Source of the DNA: a virus
Virus record (IMG/VR): IMGVR_UViG_3300042507_003672
Location: 1 to 25,887 of that record
Reading direction: 5' to 3' (one strand)
Length of the DNA stretch: 25,887 nucleotides
Shown: positions 420 to 24,578 of the stretch, one piece after another
How positions within the stretch are numbered: the first letter of the stretch is position 1
How the letters are laid out: each line of letters opens with the position of its first letter
Notes under the pieces: model-generated
Seen by the model: the letters and a program-made list of their open reading frames with translations, nothing else
Told to the model about the DNA's origin: nothing
Database searches by the model: none
Position numbers and translations under genes: made by a program

Positions 420-2122
420 CGGCCGACGATGTCGGCGCCGCCATTGCCCGCAAGGCCCAACCACCGCCAAAGCAGGGCGTGGTCGAGTGGGCCGAGGGCA
501 ATCTGACGATCGGCAACACCGCGCACTTGCACGGGCCGTATCGGACGCGAGAGACGCCCTACATCCGCGAGCCGCTTGAGGCTTTCGGCAACGAATCCAT
601 CCGGCGCATGGCGCTGGTCTGGGGCGCCCAGACGGCCAAGACCACGGCCATCCTTGCGGGCATGGGGTATCGGCTCGACCAAAACCCGGCGCCCGCGCTT
701 TGGGTCATGCCCTCCACGCACCTGGCGCGGTCGTTTTCCAAGTCGCGCTGGCTGCCAATGGTCGAAAGCTCGGACGTTTTGAAGACGCACAAGCCCGACA
801 ACGCCGACGATCTGACCATCCTCGAACAGCATTTCAAAGGGATGAGCGTGTATTTCGTCGGGTCGAACAGCCCGGCCAACCTTTCCAGCCGATCCATCGC
901 GCTCCTGATGATGGACGAGATGGACAAATTCGCGGCACAGTCGGGCAAAGAGGCGAGCCCGATCCAACTTGCCGAGGCGCGCACGGCGACATTCCCCAAC
1001 CATTTGATCGTCTGCACCTCAACGCCAACTTATGAGGACGGCGCGATCTGGACCGAATGGCTGAAGGGAGACCAGCGCCGCTACTTCCTGCCGTGCCTCG
1101 GGTGTGGCGAGCGGCAGTTCCTCGAGTGGAAGAATGTGCGCTGGGACGCCGAGGCCAAGCAGGACAACGGAATATGGAACATGGCGCGGGTGGCCGAGAC
1201 CACACGCTATGCCTGCCCGAAGTGCGGGCATCTCCACGAGAACGCCGACAAAAAGACCTGGCTCGAGCGCGGCGAGTGGCGCGCAACGGAGTTTGCCGCC
1301 GAGGCCGGCCGCCGCAGCTATCATCTGTCCTCGCTCTATTCGCCCTGGCGCACTTGGCCTGATCTGGCCGTGAAGTATTTGCAGGACTACGAAGCCCCGG
1401 GCGGGTTGCAGGATTTTCTAAACCGCGAGATGGCCGAACCGTGGAAGCCGCAGGGGGCGCTCATCACGACGGCCATGATCCGCGACCGCGTGGATGCTTC
1501 GCCGCGTTACATGATAGGCGCCGCGCCCGAGGGCAAGATGATCGGACGCCTCATGTCCATCGACGTGGGCCAGACCGAGATGTGGTGGATTGTGCGCGAG
1601 CTCCACGAGGACGGCAGCAGCTACCTCCTCGATTACGGGGCGATGGTCGGATGGGACGGCATCATGGACAAGTTCAAGCACTACAAGTGCTATCGCGGCA
1701 TCGTGGACGCAGGCTACGCGGCCAAGACCCCGGCGGGCGTTTACGATTTCGTTGCCAAGTCGGGCGGGCTCTTTGTCGCGGCCAAGGGGCGCACCGTCAG
1801 CCAGGGATTGCGCGAGCCCTACAAGTTCCAGCAAATCGTTTCGGCCGGCGCGGTGCTGTGGGCCGTGCAATTCGACGCGCACTTCTGGCAGGCCCGACTC
1901 TATCACGACATCCTGCGAGACGGGCGGGGCCGGTGGTATCTGCCCCGGGACATTGCCAAGGATTACGTCGGCCAGTTGCAGGGCGAGGCGCTTATCGAGA
2001 AAGACACAGAATCGAAGTGGCAGCGCCTCGGGCCGAACCACTTGGCCGACTGCGAGAAAATGGCCCTCGTACTGATCGACTCGATCATGGCGCAGTTCAA
2101 GGCGACCAACGCCACTCCTTGA
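383..2122 (+). CDS. phage terminase large subunit, lambda GpA family
   Basis: ATPase-nuclease motor that pumps DNA into the prohead and cuts it. The 579-aa length fits the GpA family. Seen: Walker A-like GAQTAKTT at residues 81-88 (the family usually has GAQTGKT); Walker B LLMMDE at 174-179; paired CxxC motifs at 238-241 and 278-281, as in the zinc-binding insert of GpA proteins; and a C-terminal nuclease-like segment beginning MSIDVGQTE with D394. The start chosen is GTG at 383, which overlaps the preceding gene; no strong Shine-Dalgarno sequence is visible. The stop TGA lies inside a TTGACA box (2119) placed 20 nt before the next gene. Confidence 0.95.
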   Translation: MSDFLGQIKSSLTADDVGAAIARKAQPPPKQGVVEWAEGNLTIGNTAHLHGPYRTRETPYIREPLEAFGNESIRRMALVWGAQTAKTTAILAGMGYRLDQNPAPALWVMPSTHLARSFSKSRWLPMVESSDVLKTHKPDNADDLTILEQHFKGMSVYFVGSNSPANLSSRSIALLMMDEMDKFAAQSGKEASPIQLAEARTATFPNHLIVCTSTPTYEDGAIWTEWLKGDQRRYFLPCLGCGERQFLEWKNVRWDAEAKQDNGIWNMARVAETTRYACPKCGHLHENADKKTWLERGEWRATEFAAEAGRRSYHLSSLYSPWRTWPDLAVKYLQDYEAPGGLQDFLNREMAEPWKPQGALITTAMIRDRVDASPRYMIGAAPEGKMIGRLMSIDVGQTEMWWIVRELHEDGSSYLLDYGAMVGWDGIMDKFKHYKCYRGIVDAGYAAKTPAGVYDFVAKSGGLFVAAKGRTVSQGLREPYKFQQIVSAGAVLWAVQFDAHFWQARLYHDILRDGRGRWYLPRDIAKDYVGQLQGEALIEKDTESKWQRLGPNHLADCEKMALVLIDSIMAQFKATNATP

Positions 2123-2124
2123 CA
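2119..2124 (+). promoter_or_regulatory. TTGACA start-associated box (-20)
   Basis: TTGACA begins 20 nt before the ATG at 2139, and the terminase stop TGA is embedded in it. No -10 box is possible at standard spacing before the start. See findings. Confidence 0.45.
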
Positions 2125-2138
2125 CAGCCCGCGAGGGC

Positions 2139-2402
2139 ATGACCGACGCCTCGATGCTGGCCTCCGTTTTCACGGCCAGCGAATTGTCCCAACTGAAAGC
2201 CTCCTGCAAAGCGCAGATTCTTGCGGGCGGGGCTTCGCAAGCGTTCGTTGTGTCAAGCAGTGTGGGCGGCCGCTCCGTCACGCTTCAGCAAACCTACAAC
2301 GCCTGGGATATGCTCGGCCTGATTGAAACGGCGCTGGCGATCAATGCCGGCACGGTGGGCAACAGCCGCGTCACCCAAGTCCGCTTCCCGAACCGCACCT
2401 AA
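2139..2402 (+). CDS. gpW-like head-tail joining protein
   Basis: An 87-aa protein between large terminase and portal, the position of lambda gpW. Its content (a helical N-terminus rich in A/S/Q, GGRSVTLQQ in the middle, then a second helix DMLGLIETAL) resembles gpW-type joiners, small proteins that close the portal after packaging. The gene starts 16 nt after the terminase stop and its own stop overlaps the portal start in TAATG, so the three genes are one translational unit. Family assignment is by position and size as much as by sequence. Confidence 0.7.
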   Translation: MTDASMLASVFTASELSQLKASCKAQILAGGASQAFVVSSSVGGRSVTLQQTYNAWDMLGLIETALAINAGTVGNSRVTQVRFPNRT

Positions 2403-3928
2403 TGGCTAAAACCACCAGCTTTGTTGACCGTCTCGCCGCGCGCTTTGGCTTTTCGCGCATGATCGAAGCCGTGAACCACCGCAGCGAGGAGCGCGGCTGG
2501 GTCTACGCGCAGGCGCAGGATAGCAAAGTCGATCTTTCCTCCTATGACCGCACGCGCCTGATGGCGTTAAGCCGCAAATGCTTTTACAACAACGCCATTG
2601 TGCGCGGGGCTGTCAGGGATAAAGCCCTGTATTCTGTCGGCTCGGGCATCGGCATCCGTCCGCAGGCCATGACCGGCGATCAGGAGTGGGACGATGCGGC
2701 CGAGGCATGGTGGGAAAATTGGTCGCGGCAGCCTGAGATCTCGGGCCGCCACGATATGCGCGGCCTGCAAATGCTGGTCTCGGAGGCCATCGACCGAGAC
2801 GGCGAAATCTTTGCTATCCTCACCGCCCGGCAAGACGGCGCTCCCGCTGTCCAGATTGTCGAAGCCCACCGCATCGAGTCGCCCGACACGGCGGCCAACA
2901 ACGGCGGCGTGGTGGACGGCGTGAAGCTCGACAAATTCCAGCGTCCGCTCAGTTACTTCATCGGAGAAGGCGACGAATACCCCCGCCGGCATCGGGAGAT
3001 CAAAGCCGAGGCCATGCTTCACGTCTTCGAGCCCGAGCGCGCCGATCAAGTGCGCGGCTATCCGGCTGTCGGTGTGGCGCTCAACTCCATCTTGGACCGC
3101 GACGAACTTCTACGATTTGAAATGATGGCGGCCAAGGCAGGCAGCAGCATTGGCCTGGTCATCAAAAACAACACCGGCACGATCGGCGCCGAAGGATTTT
3201 TTGGCGATCTGAGCAAAGACAGCAACGGCAACCTGACCCGCGAATCCATGTTCGGCGGTGGTTTGGTGCCGCGCCTCAAGACCACGGAAGACATCCAGAG
3301 CTTCCAGATGAACCGCCCGAACGAGAAGCTCGACAAGCACCTCGAGCAATACATCCGCGCGGCGGCCATCGGCCTCGGGCTGCCTTATGAGTTTGTCTGG
3401 GACACGTCCGCTGTCGGAGGTGTCGCGCAAAGATTTATCATTCAAAAAGCCGCGCGTTGTTTTGCGGGCCGCCAGGATGTCCTGATCAACGCCTTCCTCA
3501 ATAAGTTGTGGGGCTACGCCATCGCCAACGCTATGCGCCGCCGCGAGCTTCCGATGAATCCCAACTGGCGCAACGTTGGCTGGCAGACCCCGCGCTCCAT
3601 TACCGTGGACGTTGGCCGCGAGGCCGCAGCACGCCGGGACGATGTAAAGGCGGGTCTGATGACGCTTTCCGATTTCTTTGGCGAGCAGGGCATCGACTGG
3701 AAAGAAGCTGTGTCCGAGATTGCCGCCGAACGTGAATTTGCCGCATCGCTCGGCGTCAGCATTGGCGTGGAGCAGCCGCAGCCGCAGGCCGAGATTCTCC
3801 CGCAAGAAGAAGCGCCCGCCGCCGAACCGCCACAACTTTCCGAACCTACCCAACCGACCGAATTGGCACTGCCGAAAAAGCGCAAGCGCCTTTATCGCCG
3901 GAAGAAGGTCGAAAAGCCGACTGCTTGA
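2402..3928 (+). CDS. phage portal protein, lambda family
   Basis: Dodecameric DNA channel at the head vertex. The 508-aa length is typical. Characteristic stretches: SYDRTRLMALSRKCFYNN near the N-terminus, ALYSVGSGIGIRPQ, DGEIFAIL, IVEAHRIESPD, and the C-proximal IRAAAIGLGLPYEFVWD followed by AQRFIIQKAAR. The last ~70 residues are a P/E/Q-rich tail ending in a strongly basic patch (KKRKRLYRRKK), which may contact DNA or scaffold. The start ATG overlaps the preceding stop. The stop TGA lies in a TTGACA box that precedes the protease start by 21 nt. Confidence 0.95.
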   Translation: MAKTTSFVDRLAARFGFSRMIEAVNHRSEERGWVYAQAQDSKVDLSSYDRTRLMALSRKCFYNNAIVRGAVRDKALYSVGSGIGIRPQAMTGDQEWDDAAEAWWENWSRQPEISGRHDMRGLQMLVSEAIDRDGEIFAILTARQDGAPAVQIVEAHRIESPDTAANNGGVVDGVKLDKFQRPLSYFIGEGDEYPRRHREIKAEAMLHVFEPERADQVRGYPAVGVALNSILDRDELLRFEMMAAKAGSSIGLVIKNNTGTIGAEGFFGDLSKDSNGNLTRESMFGGGLVPRLKTTEDIQSFQMNRPNEKLDKHLEQYIRAAAIGLGLPYEFVWDTSAVGGVAQRFIIQKAARCFAGRQDVLINAFLNKLWGYAIANAMRRRELPMNPNWRNVGWQTPRSITVDVGREAAARRDDVKAGLMTLSDFFGEQGIDWKEAVSEIAAEREFAASLGVSIGVEQPQPQAEILPQEEAPAAEPPQLSEPTQPTELALPKKRKRLYRRKKVEKPTA

Positions 3929-3930
3929 CA
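3925..3930 (+). promoter_or_regulatory. TTGACA start-associated box (-21)
   Basis: The box overlaps the portal stop codon and precedes the protease ATG (3946) by 21 nt. Confidence 0.4.
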
Positions 3931-3945: not shown

Positions 3946-4794
3946 ATGGACGCGCTTAAATTTGAAGGCATCTCCGTCGCCACTGTTGGCCCGGCGCTCG
4001 GTCATGCCATGCTGGTGGACGATGTGACTCTGTTGCAGGCCGAAGCGGCCGGCCAAGTGGGCAGCCCGGTCAAGGTGTTTGTCGATCACGACGAAAGCAT
4101 CGACAGCCTGATCGGCTTTCTCGCCAACTTTCGTATTGAGGAAGACCAACTGCGCGCGGACCTTGAGCTCCTCGGCTCTCACCCCCAAGCGTCTTTCTAT
4201 TCCGAGATCCTGACCAAAGCCCCGCAGCGCGTCGGCTTCAGCATGACCTTCAGCGGAACGCCGGACGAAAACGAAGACGGCACCCGCCTGGCGCGCGTTT
4301 CGGAACTGGTCAGCGTAGACCTTGTCTCGCGCCCGGCCGCCAATCCCGACGGAGTTTTTCGCGCGTTGCCGCAGGCCGAAAAGCCGGTCGCGGTTGACAC
4401 CGCAGAAAAGGGCATGGATCAAAAATCCGCTCCTGAACAGTTCGACGCGAAGGCCGCCATCGAAGCGATGGCCGCCGAACTCCGCGCCGAGATCAAAGCC
4501 GCTTTTGAAGAAAAAGCCGAAGTGGCACCCGAAGCACCCGCTCCCGCTCCCGTCGAGGACAGCAAAGCCGCTGAACTCGCCGCGAAGCTCGAAGCCGTCA
4601 CCTCCAAGCTCTCCGTTTTGGAAGTCGAACTCGCCGCTCGCGGCGACAACGCCGTGACGGGCAACGGTTCCGCCGTCTCCGTCGAAGAGGCTTACGCCTC
4701 GGGCGATCGCTCCACCAAATTTGAAATCGTCCGCAAAGCCCTCGAGGCCGGCGATTTCGCGCTCATCTCCAAGCTCAAACAATCCAACAAATAA
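3946..4794 (+). CDS. prohead protease with C-terminal scaffold domain
   Basis: A 282-aa two-part protein between portal and capsid. Residues 1-~145 look like an HK97-type (S78-like) prohead protease: candidate catalytic His48 in VDHDE and Ser99 in GFSMTF, followed by VSVDLVSRPAANPDG, a signature-like stretch near the end of such domains. Residues ~157-282 are Ala/Glu/Lys-rich with predicted coiled coil (AKAAIEAMAAELRAEIKAAF; ELAAKLEAVTSKLSVLEVEL) and a P/A linker, as expected of a scaffold that is later digested. An internal in-frame ATG at 4414 probably gives a separate scaffold product. The catalytic residues are my reading of conserved patterns, not verified. Confidence 0.85.
   Translation: MDALKFEGISVATVGPALGHAMLVDDVTLLQAEAAGQVGSPVKVFVDHDESIDSLIGFLANFRIEEDQLRADLELLGSHPQASFYSEILTKAPQRVGFSMTFSGTPDENEDGTRLARVSELVSVDLVSRPAANPDGVFRALPQAEKPVAVDTAEKGMDQKSAPEQFDAKAAIEAMAAELRAEIKAAFEEKAEVAPEAPAPAPVEDSKAAELAAKLEAVTSKLSVLEVELAARGDNAVTGNGSAVSVEEAYASGDRSTKFEIVRKALEAGDFALISKLKQSNK
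4394..4399 (+). promoter_or_regulatory. internal TTGACA box before nested scaffold start
   Basis: TTGACA lies within the protease coding sequence (codons for V-D-T) exactly 20 nt before an in-frame ATG at 4414, reproducing the box-to-start spacing seen before separate genes. Confidence 0.5.
4414..4794 (+). CDS. nested scaffold protein (lambda Nu3-like internal start)
   Basis: Predicted 126-aa product read in the same frame as the protease from an internal ATG at residue 157 (MDQKSAPEQ). It would contain only the coiled-coil scaffold. In lambda and relatives, the scaffold Nu3 is made from an internal start in the protease gene C, so the arrangement has precedent. Local support: TTGACA at -20, an AAAAGGGC purine stretch just before the ATG, and the start falling exactly at the domain boundary. 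Expression is inferred. Confidence 0.6.
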   Translation: MDQKSAPEQFDAKAAIEAMAAELRAEIKAAFEEKAEVAPEAPAPAPVEDSKAAELAAKLEAVTSKLSVLEVELAARGDNAVTGNGSAVSVEEAYASGDRSTKFEIVRKALEAGDFALISKLKQSNK

Positions 4795-4800
4795 CTCATC

Positions 4801-5715
4801 ATGGCCTCCATCACTGGTCTTAACGACGACATCATCTCCTCAAGCGCCCTCAAAGCGTTCGTGGATTCCCTCCATCCGCTGAATGCGTTCAGCGTGAACT
4901 ACAATGCCGAGGCCGCCCGCAAGGGTGAGGTCGTGAGCATCCCGCTCATCTCCTCGATCACGGCTTCGACCTTCAACAACACCTACGAAGGTGCGGACGG
5001 AGACGTTACCCTCACCGCCCGTGAGGTCACGATCGACAAGCACTTCCTGTCCACGGTCGATTTCACCGACACGCAATGGAGCAAATCCAGCGCGCTCACC
5101 CCGCAAATGCTGTCCGAGATCGGCGCAGAGCAGGGCCGTGCGGTTGCCCAGGCGTTCATCGCTTCGTGCTGGGGAATGATCACCACCGCCAACTTCGGCG
5201 CGGCGGTCGCTTCCTTCACCTCGGCCAGCTTCAGCATGGCGGATGTCCGCAAGGCCCGCCTCGAGCTCACCAAAGCTAAGGCTCCTCAGAATGACCGCGC
5301 GTTGTTCATCGAGCCCGACGCTTACGACGCGCTCCTGTCCGACAGCACCAACATCCTCGCCAACCTGAACTTCGGTTCGGAAGGCATCCGCGAGGGTCAG
5401 GTCCGCCGTCTGGCTGGCATGAACGTCTTCGAGAGCACCCTGATCCCGGCCACCAACGTCGGCACCAGCATCACTCTCGCCGGCTTCGCGGTGCATCCTT
5501 CGGCCATCGCCGTGGCAATCCGCACCCTTCAGCCGCAGGCTCCGAGCGAATACCTCGAAGCCCGCACGGTGGTCGACCCCGTCAGCGGCATCGGTCTCGG
5601 GTATCGTCGCCACTACAACACGGCGAACGGAACCCACTTCCTCAACTTCGAGGTGGTCGGCGGCTTCACCTACGGCATCACGGCCGGTCTCAAGATTCTG
5701 GCGAAGAAAGCCTAA
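4801..5715 (+). CDS. major capsid protein
   Basis: A 304-aa HK97-fold-type coat protein by position and sequence character: an early helix (SSALKAFVDSLHPLNAFS), then VVSIPLI, STVDFTDTQWSKSSA, a spine-helix-like MLSEIGAEQGRAVAQAF, the A-domain-like FIEPDAYDALLSDSTN and EGQVRRLAGMNVFES, and a C-terminal beta-rich end. It starts six nt after the protease stop with no clear Shine-Dalgarno sequence and no TTGACA box, unusual for what should be the most expressed protein. A strong intrinsic terminator follows 24 nt later. No separate decoration protein gene is seen. Confidence 0.9.
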   Translation: MASITGLNDDIISSSALKAFVDSLHPLNAFSVNYNAEAARKGEVVSIPLISSITASTFNNTYEGADGDVTLTAREVTIDKHFLSTVDFTDTQWSKSSALTPQMLSEIGAEQGRAVAQAFIASCWGMITTANFGAAVASFTSASFSMADVRKARLELTKAKAPQNDRALFIEPDAYDALLSDSTNILANLNFGSEGIREGQVRRLAGMNVFESTLIPATNVGTSITLAGFAVHPSAIAVAIRTLQPQAPSEYLEARTVVDPVSGIGLGYRRHYNTANGTHFLNFEVVGGFTYGITAGLKILAKKA

Positions 5716-5738: not shown

Positions 5739-5770
5739 CCCCGGGGCATCCGCCCCGGGGTTTTGCTTTT
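5739..5770 (+). terminator. intrinsic terminator after capsid gene
   Basis: Perfect 8-bp GC stem CCCCGGGG (5739-5746), a 6-nt loop, CCCCGGGG (5753-5760), then TTTTGCTTTT. It separates the head genes from the glycosyltransferase and tail genes and probably reduces read-through after the capsid gene. Confidence 0.92.
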
Positions 5771-5777
5771 GGTGCGG

Positions 5778-5783
5778 TTGACA
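5778..5783 (+). promoter_or_regulatory. TTGACA box before glycosyltransferase (-22)
   Basis: The box lies just after the terminator and 22 nt before the ATG at 5800. It may be a -35 element here, but no TATAAT-like -10 is visible at 16-18 nt. Confidence 0.4.
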
Positions 5784-5799
5784 AAAATGCCGTGCCCGC

Positions 5800-7554
5800 A
5801 TGAAGAACACACAGCCCTCGTTGGCGCTGGTGGCGATTGCGGGCAACTGCGAGAGCTACATCCGGCGGTTTATCGAATCATTCCAGCGGCTCACGCCGCA
5901 TATCTACATCGTCCGCGCCTGCGGAAGCCGAGATCCCGACAAGACCCTGGACATCGCCCGCGAAATGGGGTGCAAGGTTGGCGAATACAAGAACGCCGAG
6001 GCGCACCAATTCTGGGACCATGTGGACAACTTCGGCGCCGCCCGGCAAATGGCCGCCGACATGGCCGAGGCCGACGGCCACGAGTGGCTTATGTGGGCCG
6101 ATACCGATGATATCCTCGAGCCCGAGAGCGCCGACATCATCCGCGAGCATCTACGCATTACCGCCCCAGAAACCACGCTGGCGCTCGTTCCCTACCGTCT
6201 GACCAATAACGGCCTCAATCTCCTGCGGGAGCGCATCTGGCGGCGCGGCGCAGCCGTCTGGGCGGACCCTGTGCACGAGCACCTCGAGCCGGTGGACAAA
6301 TCCGGCGACGGCCACGTCCGCTGGGAGGACTGCCGCATCGTCCACGCGCCCGACTCGCACAAAGACGAGGCCGACGGCAAGCAAGGCAACCAGCGCAACT
6401 GGCGCATCATCTCATCCATCCCCGACTTCGACAAAAACCCGCGTTGGCTTTTCTACGCGAGCCTCGAGCATTTCGGGTTCAAGGATGACGAGAACGGCAT
6501 GGCCTACGCGGTCGAGGCTCTCAAAACGCCAGGGCTGGACGATAACGAGCGTTACGAGCTTTACCTTCAACTCGCCATGCGGACGCACGACTTCGGGCCG
6601 AAAAAATCGCTATTGCATGAAGCCTACAAAGTGAGCCCGTGGCGCCGCGAAGCCTTGGCCCAACTGGCTGCCGTGTCGCTCGACAACAACGAGCCGCAAG
6701 ATGCCTTGGCCTATGCCCGCGCTTTCATGGCGATCCCGGTGCCCGATGTGGTGCCGTGGACGCACCGCCCGGTGGTCTATGGTTTCGGCGGGGTGGGGCT
6801 CTATGCCTGCTGCCTGCGCGCCAACGGCGACACCGAGAAGGCCGACAAGTTCGAGCTCGAGTGGTTCAAGAAATGCGGCGGCAAGATTAGCGTGTGCCAC
6901 CCGACACGAGGCCGCCCGTTGCAGGCCGCCGAGACGCGCAAGAAGTGGCTCGAGGCGGCCAAAGACCCGCAAAGCGTGGAATACATCTTTGGTTTTGCCG
7001 AGGACGATGCCGAGACGCGCGACATTCTCGGGCGATTTAAGCACGGCCTGTCTCCCGCCGGCCTCATGGATCAGGTCGGGGGCAACGCTGTCGCCAACTA
7101 CAACGCGGCCGTGAAAGCGGCCTCCGGGCAAATCATCGTCACTGCCCAGGACGACATTGAACCCGAATTATTTTGGGATCAGAAAGTTTGGGACGCCCTC
7201 GAACCACACCTCAAACGGCCAAAGGTTCTTGGTGTGAAAGACGGCCACCGTAACGACGGCCTGCTCGTCACCTTCATTTGCACCCGCCCGACGCTGGGAT
7301 GGCTTGGCTATGGCGGGGGCATCTTGTCCGATGACTACCACGGCATCTATTCCGACACGGAATTTTCCCGCCGCGTCCGCAAGGCCGGAATTGTCTTGGA
7401 CAGCGACATTGTATTTTTGCACAACCATCCCTTCTTCAATCCCAAGATTCCGAAAGACGCCGTCTACGACGTGGAAAACTCGGACGATGCCTACAAATTT
7501 GGAGCCGAAGTCTTCAAGCGCCGCAACCCCGACACCTTTGACTCGCAGGGTTAG
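5800..7554 (+). CDS. tandem glycosyltransferase (two GT-A domains with TPR-like linker)
   Basis: A 584-aa protein. Residues 1-~190 look like a GT2 domain: LALVAIAGNCESYIRRFIES at the N-terminus and WADTDD at 99-104 as the DxD nucleotide-sugar/metal motif. Residues ~205-350 are helical repeats resembling TPRs (LFYASLEHFGF, ERYELYLQLAM, AYKVSPWRREALAQLA). Residues ~370-584 look like a second GT-A domain: ISVCHPTRGRPLQA at its start, IIVTAQDDIEP at ~445-455 as a second DxD-like site, and a terminal FLHNHPFF. It probably transfers sugars to a virion protein or host glycan; substrate unknown. It lies between the capsid terminator and the head-tail joining genes. Confidence 0.85.
   Translation: MKNTQPSLALVAIAGNCESYIRRFIESFQRLTPHIYIVRACGSRDPDKTLDIAREMGCKVGEYKNAEAHQFWDHVDNFGAARQMAADMAEADGHEWLMWADTDDILEPESADIIREHLRITAPETTLALVPYRLTNNGLNLLRERIWRRGAAVWADPVHEHLEPVDKSGDGHVRWEDCRIVHAPDSHKDEADGKQGNQRNWRIISSIPDFDKNPRWLFYASLEHFGFKDDENGMAYAVEALKTPGLDDNERYELYLQLAMRTHDFGPKKSLLHEAYKVSPWRREALAQLAAVSLDNNEPQDALAYARAFMAIPVPDVVPWTHRPVVYGFGGVGLYACCLRANGDTEKADKFELEWFKKCGGKISVCHPTRGRPLQAAETRKKWLEAAKDPQSVEYIFGFAEDDAETRDILGRFKHGLSPAGLMDQVGGNAVANYNAAVKAASGQIIVTAQDDIEPELFWDQKVWDALEPHLKRPKVLGVKDGHRNDGLLVTFICTRPTLGWLGYGGGILSDDYHGIYSDTEFSRRVRKAGIVLDSDIVFLHNHPFFNPKIPKDAVYDVENSDDAYKFGAEVFKRRNPDTFDSQG
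7538..7543 (+). promoter_or_regulatory. TTGACT box before joining protein gene (-20)
   Basis: A one-base variant of the box, inside the last codons of the glycosyltransferase and exactly 20 nt before the ATG at 7558. Confidence 0.35.
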
Positions 7555-7900: not shown

Positions 7901-8800
7901 GTGGAAATCACGGTAGACATCAGCAAATTCGGTCGGCTGATCCCGCAGCTTGCCAATGTGACCAAGCGTTCCCTTCGCTCGGTGGTCAAACAGCAGGCCA
8001 GGCTGATCATCCGAGGCAGCGGCACAGGAAGCGACGAAGGTCTAATTCCTTACACGCCGCCGCCCAAAGGACAGGAACAGGGCGAAAACGCCGTGCGCCG
8101 CGACATCTCGCGCGTCTTCGGCTCGCTCTCCAACGTCAAAAAAATCCTCAAGTATTCCAGCGTTCGAGGGGCCGGAACGGCCTTTAACCGCTACATCCGC
8201 GAAGGAGACCACGAAAAAGCCAAAGCATTGTTGAACGGGACAATGCAAAAGAACTTTCGCACCAAGGCGCACCAAAGAAACCAAGGCGGCAAGACGGTGC
8301 GCGTGCGCTCTTACGTTCAGAGCCGGCCGACGGAGATTGACCTTAAAAGCAACCGACTTGGCCGCGTCACCGACATTATCCAAGCGCTCCCGGCGGCTGG
8401 CACGCACCCGATCCACAAGTCGCGGCAGAACAACCGCAAATTTGTCTCCCGCCGCCAATGGTCTGCAGTCGTGCTGCAAAGCGGCACCGTGGCCGCATAC
8501 ATCAAACAAAAGCAAAAGAACGTCGGCACCATGAAAGCGGGATGGGTTCCCGCCGCTCGCAATCTTGGAATCACAGGGTTGCCAAAATTCGTTGCGCGCA
8601 ATTTCCGCAACAACGGCAGTTTCCTCAATGAACTTGACCAAGAAAGCCCGGCTTTCACCGCCATCAATTCCACGCCTGGCATCGGTGGCAGTCTCCGTTC
8701 GGTCATGGCCCGAACCCTGCGGGGCCGCGTCATCCGCATGAAGGCTGACATCCAGAACAAACTAAACGCCGAACTCGGCAAGCTCCAGACCGCCGCATGA
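7901..8800 (+). CDS. putative minor tail / tail-completion protein
   Basis: A 299-aa basic protein; start taken as GTG 7901, preceded at suitable spacing by GGAG (7890-7893). The frame is open further upstream but there it overlaps the preceding gene. The N-terminus (ITVDISKFGRLIPQL, then a KRSLRSVVKQQARLII helix) recalls HK97 gp10-like tail-completion proteins. The middle is rich in K/R/N/Q (KSRQNNRKFVSRRQW) and the C-terminus is helical. It overlaps the next gene by four bases (ATGA). Assignment is by context and general character. Confidence 0.6.
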   Translation: MEITVDISKFGRLIPQLANVTKRSLRSVVKQQARLIIRGSGTGSDEGLIPYTPPPKGQEQGENAVRRDISRVFGSLSNVKKILKYSSVRGAGTAFNRYIREGDHEKAKALLNGTMQKNFRTKAHQRNQGGKTVRVRSYVQSRPTEIDLKSNRLGRVTDIIQALPAAGTHPIHKSRQNNRKFVSRRQWSAVVLQSGTVAAYIKQKQKNVGTMKAGWVPAARNLGITGLPKFVARNFRNNGSFLNELDQESPAFTAINSTPGIGGSLRSVMARTLRGRVIRMKADIQNKLNAELGKLQTAA

Positions 8801-9675
8801 TCCACCGCGAACTCGAATCCAGCTTTGCCACTTGGCTCATCTCGGGCGTGAGCGGGACCAGCCTCTCGGGCGTTCCCATCCGTCATGCGGTGCCCGCCGA
8901 TCCTCTGGCCCTGCCGTGCGTCATCGTGGCCTCGGCCGGCGCCGAGCTCCTCGAGGGCGGGGTAAGGGCGGCCAGCCGCGTCAGCATGGACCTTTCCGTA
9001 GTGTCGGCGGCCAATGGTGGCCCGGGATGGCAGACCGCCCACAAGAACCGCGTGGCCGCCTTGTCCCGCAGGCTGGATGATACCAACACCAACGCCGCGC
9101 TGGCCTCGATCAATGGCGCGCAAACGGACTTCACGCTTTACGGCTGGCACCTGGTCGAGCTTGCCGCCGAGACCGAGCCGAACATCCAGACCGACACCAT
9201 CAGAATCAACCTGATCGCAGGAGATCGCATCGCCACATCCCCGACCGGGCCGACGGCCACGCCGCAGAATTACAGCCTTCGCCACGAGATCGAGCAGATC
9301 GTCAGCGCCCATCTTGGCACCGAGCTCCCGTCGGCCGTGACGGATGACTACTCCGTGTATCCATTCTACTCGGAGACCGTCGTGCCCGAGCGCCGCATTG
9401 TGGCCGCGTGCTTGGCCGCCGAGCGTCCGTTCCCGCAACTGGCCCGCTGGTCCGCGCAAGTCACCATCCACGTCATCACCTCGGGCGTCTACGCGACAAC
9501 GCACGACGAGGCCGTGCGTCAGGCGCAGGACACCCTGCGCGACATCGTGGCCCAGGACTTCACCTCGGCCAACGTCACCGTGGCCGGGATGCTCGAGACA
9601 GGCCACACGATCGACCGATCCGACAACCGCATCGTGGACGTGTTGGCCGTGACCCTTTACTGCCAGCAAAATTGA
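8797..9675 (+). CDS. tail terminator-like protein with internal duplication
   Basis: A 292-aa protein that appears to carry two related domains joined by a Pro/Thr linker (~143-158). Half 1 (~1-142) has HRELESSFATWL, PCVIVASAGAELLEG, RVSMDLSVVSAA, HKNRVAALSRRL and DTIRINLIAG. Half 2 (~159-292) repeats that order: RHEIEQIVSAHL, RRIVAACLAAERPFPQ, WSAQVTIHVITSG, HDEAVRQAQDTLRDI and DVLAVTLYCQ. Each resembles a tail-terminator (gpU-like) module that caps the tail tube, and position before the tube gene agrees. Such proteins are normally single-domain, about 130-160 aa. The stop TGA lies in a TTGACA box. Confidence 0.7.
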   Translation: MIHRELESSFATWLISGVSGTSLSGVPIRHAVPADPLALPCVIVASAGAELLEGGVRAASRVSMDLSVVSAANGGPGWQTAHKNRVAALSRRLDDTNTNAALASINGAQTDFTLYGWHLVELAAETEPNIQTDTIRINLIAGDRIATSPTGPTATPQNYSLRHEIEQIVSAHLGTELPSAVTDDYSVYPFYSETVVPERRIVAACLAAERPFPQLARWSAQVTIHVITSGVYATTHDEAVRQAQDTLRDIVAQDFTSANVTVAGMLETGHTIDRSDNRIVDVLAVTLYCQQN

Positions 9676-9677
9676 CA
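9672..9677 (+). promoter_or_regulatory. TTGACA box before tail tube gene (-20)
   Basis: The box overlaps the stop of the preceding gene and lies 20 nt before the tail tube ATG (9692). CGAGGGC immediately precedes the ATG, as at 2139. Confidence 0.45.
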
Positions 9678-15454: not shown

Positions 15455-15460
15455 TTGACA
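15455..15460 (+). promoter_or_regulatory. TTGACA box before second glycosyltransferase (-22)
   Basis: The box lies in the 26-nt gap after the Ser/Thr-rich gene, 22 nt before the GTG at 15477. Confidence 0.35.
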
Positions 15461-16916: not shown

Positions 16917-16922
16917 TTGACA
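16917..16922 (+). promoter_or_regulatory. TTGACA box before BppU-like gene (-26)
   Basis: The box lies 26 nt before the ATG at 16943, looser than the others. The gap also contains tandem GAGGGC/GAGGGCAGGGCC purine blocks. Confidence 0.3.
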
Positions 16923-21701: not shown

Positions 21702-21707
21702 TTGACA
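21702..21707 (+). promoter_or_regulatory. TTGACA box before lysis cluster (-20)
   Basis: The box lies 20 nt before ATG 21722. A small hairpin, CCCC-GGCGC-GGGG (21708-21720), fills the space up to one base before the start and could hide it. Confidence 0.45.
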
Positions 21708-24572: not shown

Positions 24573-24578
24573 TGTCAA
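24573..24578 (-). promoter_or_regulatory. TTGACA box on minus strand (-20)
   Basis: The box on minus (24578 to 24573) lies exactly 20 nt before the GTG at 24558. It shows that the box/start arrangement is not limited to the + strand late operon. Confidence 0.45.

What the first reader, a model, noticed from the sequence alone, without database searches (positions are those of the whole stretch)
4394..4794. The same box marks a Nu3-like nested scaffold start inside the protease gene
TTGACA at 4394 lies exactly 20 nt before the in-frame ATG 4414, at the protease/scaffold boundary. Lambda-type phages make scaffold from an internal start (Nu3 in C). Here a box found before separate genes appears within coding sequence where such a start is needed, which supports both the nested gene and a functional role for the box.
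Basis: partly seen in the sequence, partly recalled or inferred. Interest (0 to 1): 0.75.

Follow-up and report, generated by a model that had tools for sequence, protein, structure and literature searches.

The report
TTGACA box marks nested scaffold start
In a family of viruses of Verrucomicrobiota bacteria, the six-letter sequence TTGACA sits about 20 letters before many gene starts, including a hidden second start inside the capsid-protease gene that would make the scaffold protein alone; it seems to do the job of the usual ribosome-binding site, though nobody has measured it.

Summary
TTGACA at 4394 lies 20 nt before in-frame ATG 4414 (codon 157 of 282). All 58 homologous viral contigs covering the spot have the box exactly 20 nt before an in-frame ATG. 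In 29 aligned homologs (32-94% identity) the two box codons (GTT GAC) are the only 2 of 50 invariant residues with no synonymous change. A Verrucomicrobiota prophage homolog and a Spartobacteria prophage with an unrelated S49 protease carry the same in-frame box. A remote homolog group has a Shine-Dalgarno (SD) site at that boundary instead, and also before its own start.

Genome-wide, TTGACA is the hexamer most associated with an ATG 19-22 nt downstream in the window and four of six related phages, but not in host DNA. 79 independent sites show no second element, so a sigma-70 promoter is unlikely. In the window, box genes start away from the upstream stop; boxless genes abut it (p=4e-4).

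Best reading: a phage-specific start-associated signal for de novo translation initiation, used for a Nu3-like nested scaffold. What recognises it is unknown; there are no expression data.

The parts
4394..4399 (+). internal start-associated box TTGACA, read in the protease frame as (G)TT GAC A = V-D-T
   Evidence: GTT and GAC invariant in 29/29 homologs
4414..4416 (+). internal in-frame ATG (codon 157), proposed scaffold start
   Evidence: Met invariant in all 29 aligned homologs; V-to-M spacing 7 codons
4414..4794 (+). nested ORF, 126 aa, acidic (pI 4.7), helical in the model: proposed scaffold protein
3946..4794 (+). full-length head maturation protease-scaffold gene, 282 aa
   Evidence: AF2 model with Foldseek hits to HCMV protease, T4 gp21 and phage head maturation proteases on the beta-rich N-terminal part; between portal and major capsid genes
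4336..4443 (+). low-confidence, length-variable linker (about residues 131-166) holding box and internal ATG
   Evidence: pLDDT below 50 over most of residues 131-166; indels in alignment A2
3925..3930 (+). box 21 nt before the gene's own ATG 3946
   Evidence: present upstream of the own start in all distinct homologs printed
2119..2124 (+). box 20 nt before ATG 2139
5778..5783 (+). box 22 nt before ATG 5800 (glycosyltransferase-like)
7538..7543 (+). variant box TTGACT 20 nt before ATG 7558
9672..9677 (+). box 20 nt before ATG 9692
15455..15460 (+). box 22 nt before GTG 15477
16917..16922 (+). box 26 nt before ATG 16943
21702..21707 (+). box 20 nt before ATG 21722 (52-aa ORF)
24573..24578 (-). 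box 20 nt before GTG 24558 (ortholog in G157 is a metallophosphoesterase)
4801..5715 (+). major capsid protein gene; no box, starts 6 nt after the protease-scaffold stop

Best explanation
TTGAC(A/T) placed 18-23 nt (mostly 19-22) before a start codon is a phage-specific start-associated signal for de novo translation initiation in a set of Verrucomicrobiota phages, working in place of a Shine-Dalgarno site. Inside the protease gene it directs ribosomes to an in-frame internal ATG. One mRNA then yields the full-length protease-scaffold fusion (282 aa, from ATG 3946 with its own box) and a separate 126-aa scaffold (from ATG 4414), as lambda C/Nu3 and Mu do. Genes without a box are read by coupling to the stop codon of the gene before. 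Shown: placement, conservation, nucleotide-level constraint, absence from host genes, SD at the same boundary in a relative. Inferred: that it acts on translation, that the scaffold is made, and that something (host or phage factor, unknown) recognises the hexamer.
For: 58/58 homologous contigs keep box, in-frame ATG and 20-nt spacing despite linker indels and diverged spacer sequence. V150 (GTT 29/29) and D151 (GAC 29/29) are the only 2 of 50 invariant residues without synonymous change; GTT is 32% of Val codons, GAC 72% of Asp. L191/L192 (protease 32% identical) have the same in-frame pair. A prophage homolog in Verrucomicrobiota genome G257 (L383) has a box before its own start and an in-frame internal box, 23 nt. 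A Spartobacteria prophage with an S49 protease has it at the protease/coiled-coil boundary. In L385/L401/L402 that internal Met is preceded by AAGGAGTCAGAA, and their own starts by AGGAG or AGGGG: the two positions change signal together. TTGACA ranks 1 of about 3,100-3,900 hexamers for ATG at 19-22 nt in the window, G152, C22, G257 and G156, and 2-3 in C18 and G157; hosts rank 12 and 498. 79 independent sites: only TTGAC[A/T] and a following C are strongly conserved. Window: box genes start more than 8 nt from the upstream stop in 7/8, boxless in 2/18, p=4e-4. The model puts the internal Met in a low-confidence linker between a prohead-protease-like domain and helices.
Against: No RNA, ribosome-profiling or protein data. 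16S rRNA of the Spartobacteria host has no complement to UUGACW, so no recognising partner is known. No non-structural gene is shared by all the box phages I compared. Some genes break the coupled/box rule (10269 and 22697 lack a box with gaps of 16 and 29 nt; 7558 has a box and a 3-nt gap). Host rank 12 (p=3.6e-3) in G001 is not fully zero.
Confidence: 0.68

Rival explanations
1. The box is a transcription signal: a phage-specific promoter or activator element just upstream of each start, so the scaffold has its own short-leader mRNA, as herpesvirus UL26.5 inside UL26 (from memory).
For: Fixed element before genes on both strands, one directly after a terminator-like hairpin (5740-5775) and one before the first gene of the minus-strand group (24578); the protease fold resembles assemblins.
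Against: 79 independent sites show one block only; no second element within 45 nt upstream or 36 nt downstream. Best match to TATAAT 15-19 nt after the box is 3/6 in the window. Spacing is locked to the start codon, and SD takes its place in relatives. A sigma-70 start would fall inside the gene.
Confidence: 0.17
2. The conservation is protein-level: V-D-T...M is a functional peptide of the linker, for example an autocleavage site, and no internal initiation takes place.
For: The protease family processes capsid proteins; V, D and M are invariant in the linker.
Against: Zero synonymous variation in the V and D codons; the same hexamer at the same spacing before genes where it is read in other frames or overlaps a stop codon; V-D also in an unrelated S49 protease; SD before the same Met in relatives.
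Confidence: 0.06
3. TTGACA acts only in termination-reinitiation, since TTGA often contains the upstream TGA stop.
For: In 2119, 3925 and 9672 the box overlaps the upstream stop.
Against: The internal box, 5778 and 24578 have no stop in it, and most genes that start next to a stop lack it.
Confidence: 0.04
4. Chance: TTGACA is not over-represented in the window.
For: 11 found against 9.8 expected.
Against: Spacing enrichment at rank 1 in independent phages and constraint in homologs.
Confidence: 0.01

Closest known systems
Lambda C/Nu3 and Mu-type protease-scaffold genes with an in-frame internal scaffold start
   Same: Scaffold nested in frame at the 3' end of the head protease gene, between portal and major capsid genes; relatives L385/L401/L402 even mark it with SD, as reported for Mu-like phages (PMC4378225).
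   Different: Here the internal start is marked by TTGACA at -20 rather than SD, and the window's protease resembles the assemblin/prohead fold rather than S49.
Start-Associated Sequences (SAS) of Cluster K mycobacteriophages (PMC3203893)
   Same: Short conserved sequence repeated before many start codons of one phage group, in one orientation, absent from the host, proposed to act in translation initiation, mechanism unknown.
   Different: SAS is 13 bp, 3-7 nt before the start, contains SD (AGGAG) and is in non-structural genes; this box is 6 bp, about 20 nt before, has no SD core and is mostly in structural genes.
Non-SD initiation signals of Bacteroidota (PMC6847099, abstract)
   Same: Initiation without SD.
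   Different: Those are tuned by mRNA structure and base identities in the host's own mRNAs; this is a hexamer confined to phages.
Herpesvirus UL26/UL26.5 (from memory)
   Same: Scaffold nested in frame in an assemblin-fold protease gene.
   Different: UL26.5 is made from its own internal transcript; no promoter evidence here.

Membership tests
Nested protease/scaffold gene (lambda C/Nu3, Mu type) | in-frame internal start at the protease/scaffold boundary | tested here: met
   ATG 4414 in frame, conserved in 29/29
Nested protease/scaffold gene (lambda C/Nu3, Mu type) | gene order portal - protease/scaffold - major capsid | tested here: met
   2402-3928 Phage_portal_2; 4801-5715 Phage_capsid_2 at its cut-off
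Nested protease/scaffold gene (lambda C/Nu3, Mu type) | S49 (ClpP-like) protease domain, as in lambda gpC | tested here: not met
   no Pfam S49 in the window protein; Foldseek gives assemblin/prohead-fold proteases. Met in related prophage L286
Nested protease/scaffold gene (lambda C/Nu3, Mu type) | separate scaffold polypeptide in proheads | not testable with these tools
   no proteomics
Start-Associated Sequence (Cluster K SAS) | short repeat tightly placed before start codons, one orientation | tested here: met
Start-Associated Sequence (Cluster K SAS) | GGGATAGGAGCCC 3-7 nt before the start, with SD core | tested here: not met
   consensus TTGAC[A/T]C 18-23 nt before the start, no SD
Shine-Dalgarno site | pairs with the 3' end of 16S rRNA | tested here: not met
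   no WGUCAA in the G001 16S rRNA
sigma-70 promoter | -10 hexamer 15-19 nt after TTGACA | tested here: not met

The most novel reading that the evidence does not exclude
Verrucomicrobiota phages use a second class of ribosome-recruitment signal, UUGACW at about -20, recognised by an unknown factor and interchangeable with Shine-Dalgarno, which separates box-driven structural genes from SD-bearing early genes and host mRNA.
Probability: 0.4. Interest if true: 0.88.

Novelty: new variant of a known kind. Interest (0 to 1): 0.7.

Why it matters
Nested scaffold starts and phage start-associated sequences are known, but I found no description of a single hexamer about 20 nt upstream that takes the place of Shine-Dalgarno. 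It would make gene starts predictable in these phages. It also poses a testable question: what on the 30S subunit, or which phage or host factor, reads UUGACW at the edge of the initiation footprint, and why the host does not use it.

Tried and rejected
Host-wide use: 0 of 75 host genes in G001 have the box; hexamer rank 12 and 498 in two hosts; TTGACA-ATG pairs in host DNA rarely open a reading frame. An extended pattern (TTGACACN7GAGGGCATG) over 85,000 genomes gave 88 hits spread over many phyla, about chance, so the GGGC before ATG is a habit of one phage group. A scan of 145 Verrucomicrobiota genomes gave 0-7 hits per genome. Hairpin between box and ATG (GCCC..GGGC at 2119, 9672, 21702): not kept at the internal site or in other groups. 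16S pairing: the only near match is h35 GACGUCAAGUC, which would favour TTGACG; TTGACG shows no spacing enrichment. Phage-encoded factor: only structural genes are shared among box phages. Terminase alignment against genome contigs found no host. Akkermansia phage Moulinsart, a remote relative, lacks the signal.

Full report
Observation. TTGACA occupies 4394-4399 and the in-frame ATG starts at 4414, 20 nt later, at codon 157 of the 282-aa gene 3946-4794. TTGACA is not over-represented in the window (11 against 9.8 expected), so counting alone proves nothing; position does. Among 3391 hexamers TTGACA is the one most associated with an ATG 19-22 nt downstream (6/11, p=6.9e-6). In related viral contigs 183 of 312 distinct TTGACA sites have an ATG at 20-23 nt, against 34 of 347 for the reversed hexamer; TTGACT behaves alike, TTGACC and TTGACG do not.

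The internal start. IMG/VR holds 60 loci encoding relatives of the gene; 58 cover the spot and every one has the box exactly 20 nt before an in-frame ATG, including two (L120, L121) in which the bases between have diverged. Many of these contigs are near-identical, so the number of independent lineages is smaller. In the 29-member alignment A2 (32-94% identity to the window) the linker varies in length, with an insertion of about 10 residues in four members, but V150, D151 and M157 are invariant and 7 codons apart from V to M. Of 50 invariant residues, V150 (GTT 29/29) and D151 (GAC 29/29) are the only two without any synonymous change; GTT is 32% of Val and GAC 72% of Asp codons in these genes. 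For the two box codons to be the two least variable of 50 by chance is 1 in 1225, ignoring phylogeny.

Other instances. L191/L192 carry the pair in frame 147 codons into a protease 32% identical to the window's. Prophage homolog L383 (genome G257, Verrucomicrobiota) has a box 22 nt before its own start and an in-frame internal box 23 nt before ATG. In a Spartobacteria MAG (G001, contig C22) a prophage, followed on the same contig by a recombinase, tRNAs and host genes such as gcvT, has an S49-family protease gene (7659-8966 of L286, Pfam S49 E=5e-28) with an in-frame box at 8485 and ATG 8505, giving a 153-aa coiled-coil-like product just before the capsid gene. That protease class is different, so this is a separate occurrence of the arrangement.

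Exchange with Shine-Dalgarno. In a remote homolog group (L385, L401, L402) the Met at the same boundary is preceded by AAGGAGTCAGAA in all three, and their own starts by AGGAG or AGGGG. Box-type genes have the box at both positions; SD-type genes have SD at both. Two further remote homologs (L384, L386) have neither signal at a Met near the boundary.

What the box is. 79 independent sites show TTGAC[A 69/T 10], a following C, a weak GC before the start codon, and no second block within 45 nt upstream or 36 nt downstream. Spacing is 18-23, mostly 19-22. That argues against a sigma-70 promoter, as does the absence of TATAAT-like sequence 15-19 nt after the box. In the window, box genes start more than 8 nt from the upstream stop in 7 of 8 cases, boxless genes in 2 of 18 (p=4e-4): boxless genes look coupled, box genes initiate afresh. 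Start choices in this comparison were made by hand. SD-like sequences are scarce in the window's structural genes (3 of 21 by an automatic count); in the three phage sequences together they are more common in early genes (25/76) than in late ones (9/66, p=0.01, noisy start calling).

Phage, not host. TTGACA is the top hexamer in the window, G152, G001-C22, G257 and G156 and rank 2-3 in G001-C18 and G157, but rank 12 and 498 in the two hosts. Prophage sites have ATG at 18-23 nt in 22/29 against 13/67 in host DNA (p=3e-7), and the host pairs mostly do not open genes. None of 75 host genes has the box, while 15 have SD. The host 16S rRNA offers no complement to UUGACW. Box phages share only structural genes, so the reader of the signal is unknown.

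Protein. No Pfam family matches the window's product convincingly. The AlphaFold model has modest confidence (mean pLDDT 60), with a beta-rich N-terminal part resembling HCMV protease and T4 gp21 (Foldseek probability 0.98, E no better than 5e-3) and predicted phage head maturation proteases (E down to 1e-6), a low-confidence linker at residues 131-166 and helices from 168. The internal Met lies in the linker.

Conclusion. The nested scaffold start is very likely real (about 0.85) and belongs with lambda C/Nu3 and Mu as a mechanism. The box is best read as a phage-specific start-associated translation signal (about 0.7 given the nested start), closest in kind to the SAS of Cluster K mycobacteriophages (PMC3203893) but different in sequence, place and lack of SD. 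Mu-like phages mark the same nested start with SD (PMC4378225). Not shown: expression, transcript ends, the recognising partner, and the window phage's own host.

Noticed in passing
window 5740-5800: A strong terminator-like hairpin (CCCCGGGG..CCCCGGGG, then TTTTGCTTTT) follows the capsid gene, and a box and ATG follow it within 30 nt.
   Followed up: no
L373:5389-5892 (minus), L371:3574-4092: The gene before the terminase (weak Crp-like HTH match in L373) has an SD-preceded ATG directly followed by a box (+4) and a second in-frame ATG 23 nt after the box: possibly two starts with two signals.
   Followed up: partly
L026, L035, L129, L135 protease genes: An insertion reading about DRMHKDFQHP sits in the linker just upstream of the box in members of different subgroups; function unknown.
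   Followed up: no
window 10269 and 22697: Two genes without exact box, SD or close upstream stop; upstream sequences hold TTAATC (about -19) and TTGAAC (about -16), perhaps degenerate boxes.
   Followed up: no
window 5800-7554: A glycosyltransferase-family-2-like gene sits inside the head gene cluster and is kept in related phages, including L191 (7199-8890).
   Followed up: no
L393 / L384 (genome G203): A remote relative has TTGACG 21 nt before its own start and no internal box; possibly a variant or a lost signal.
   Followed up: no
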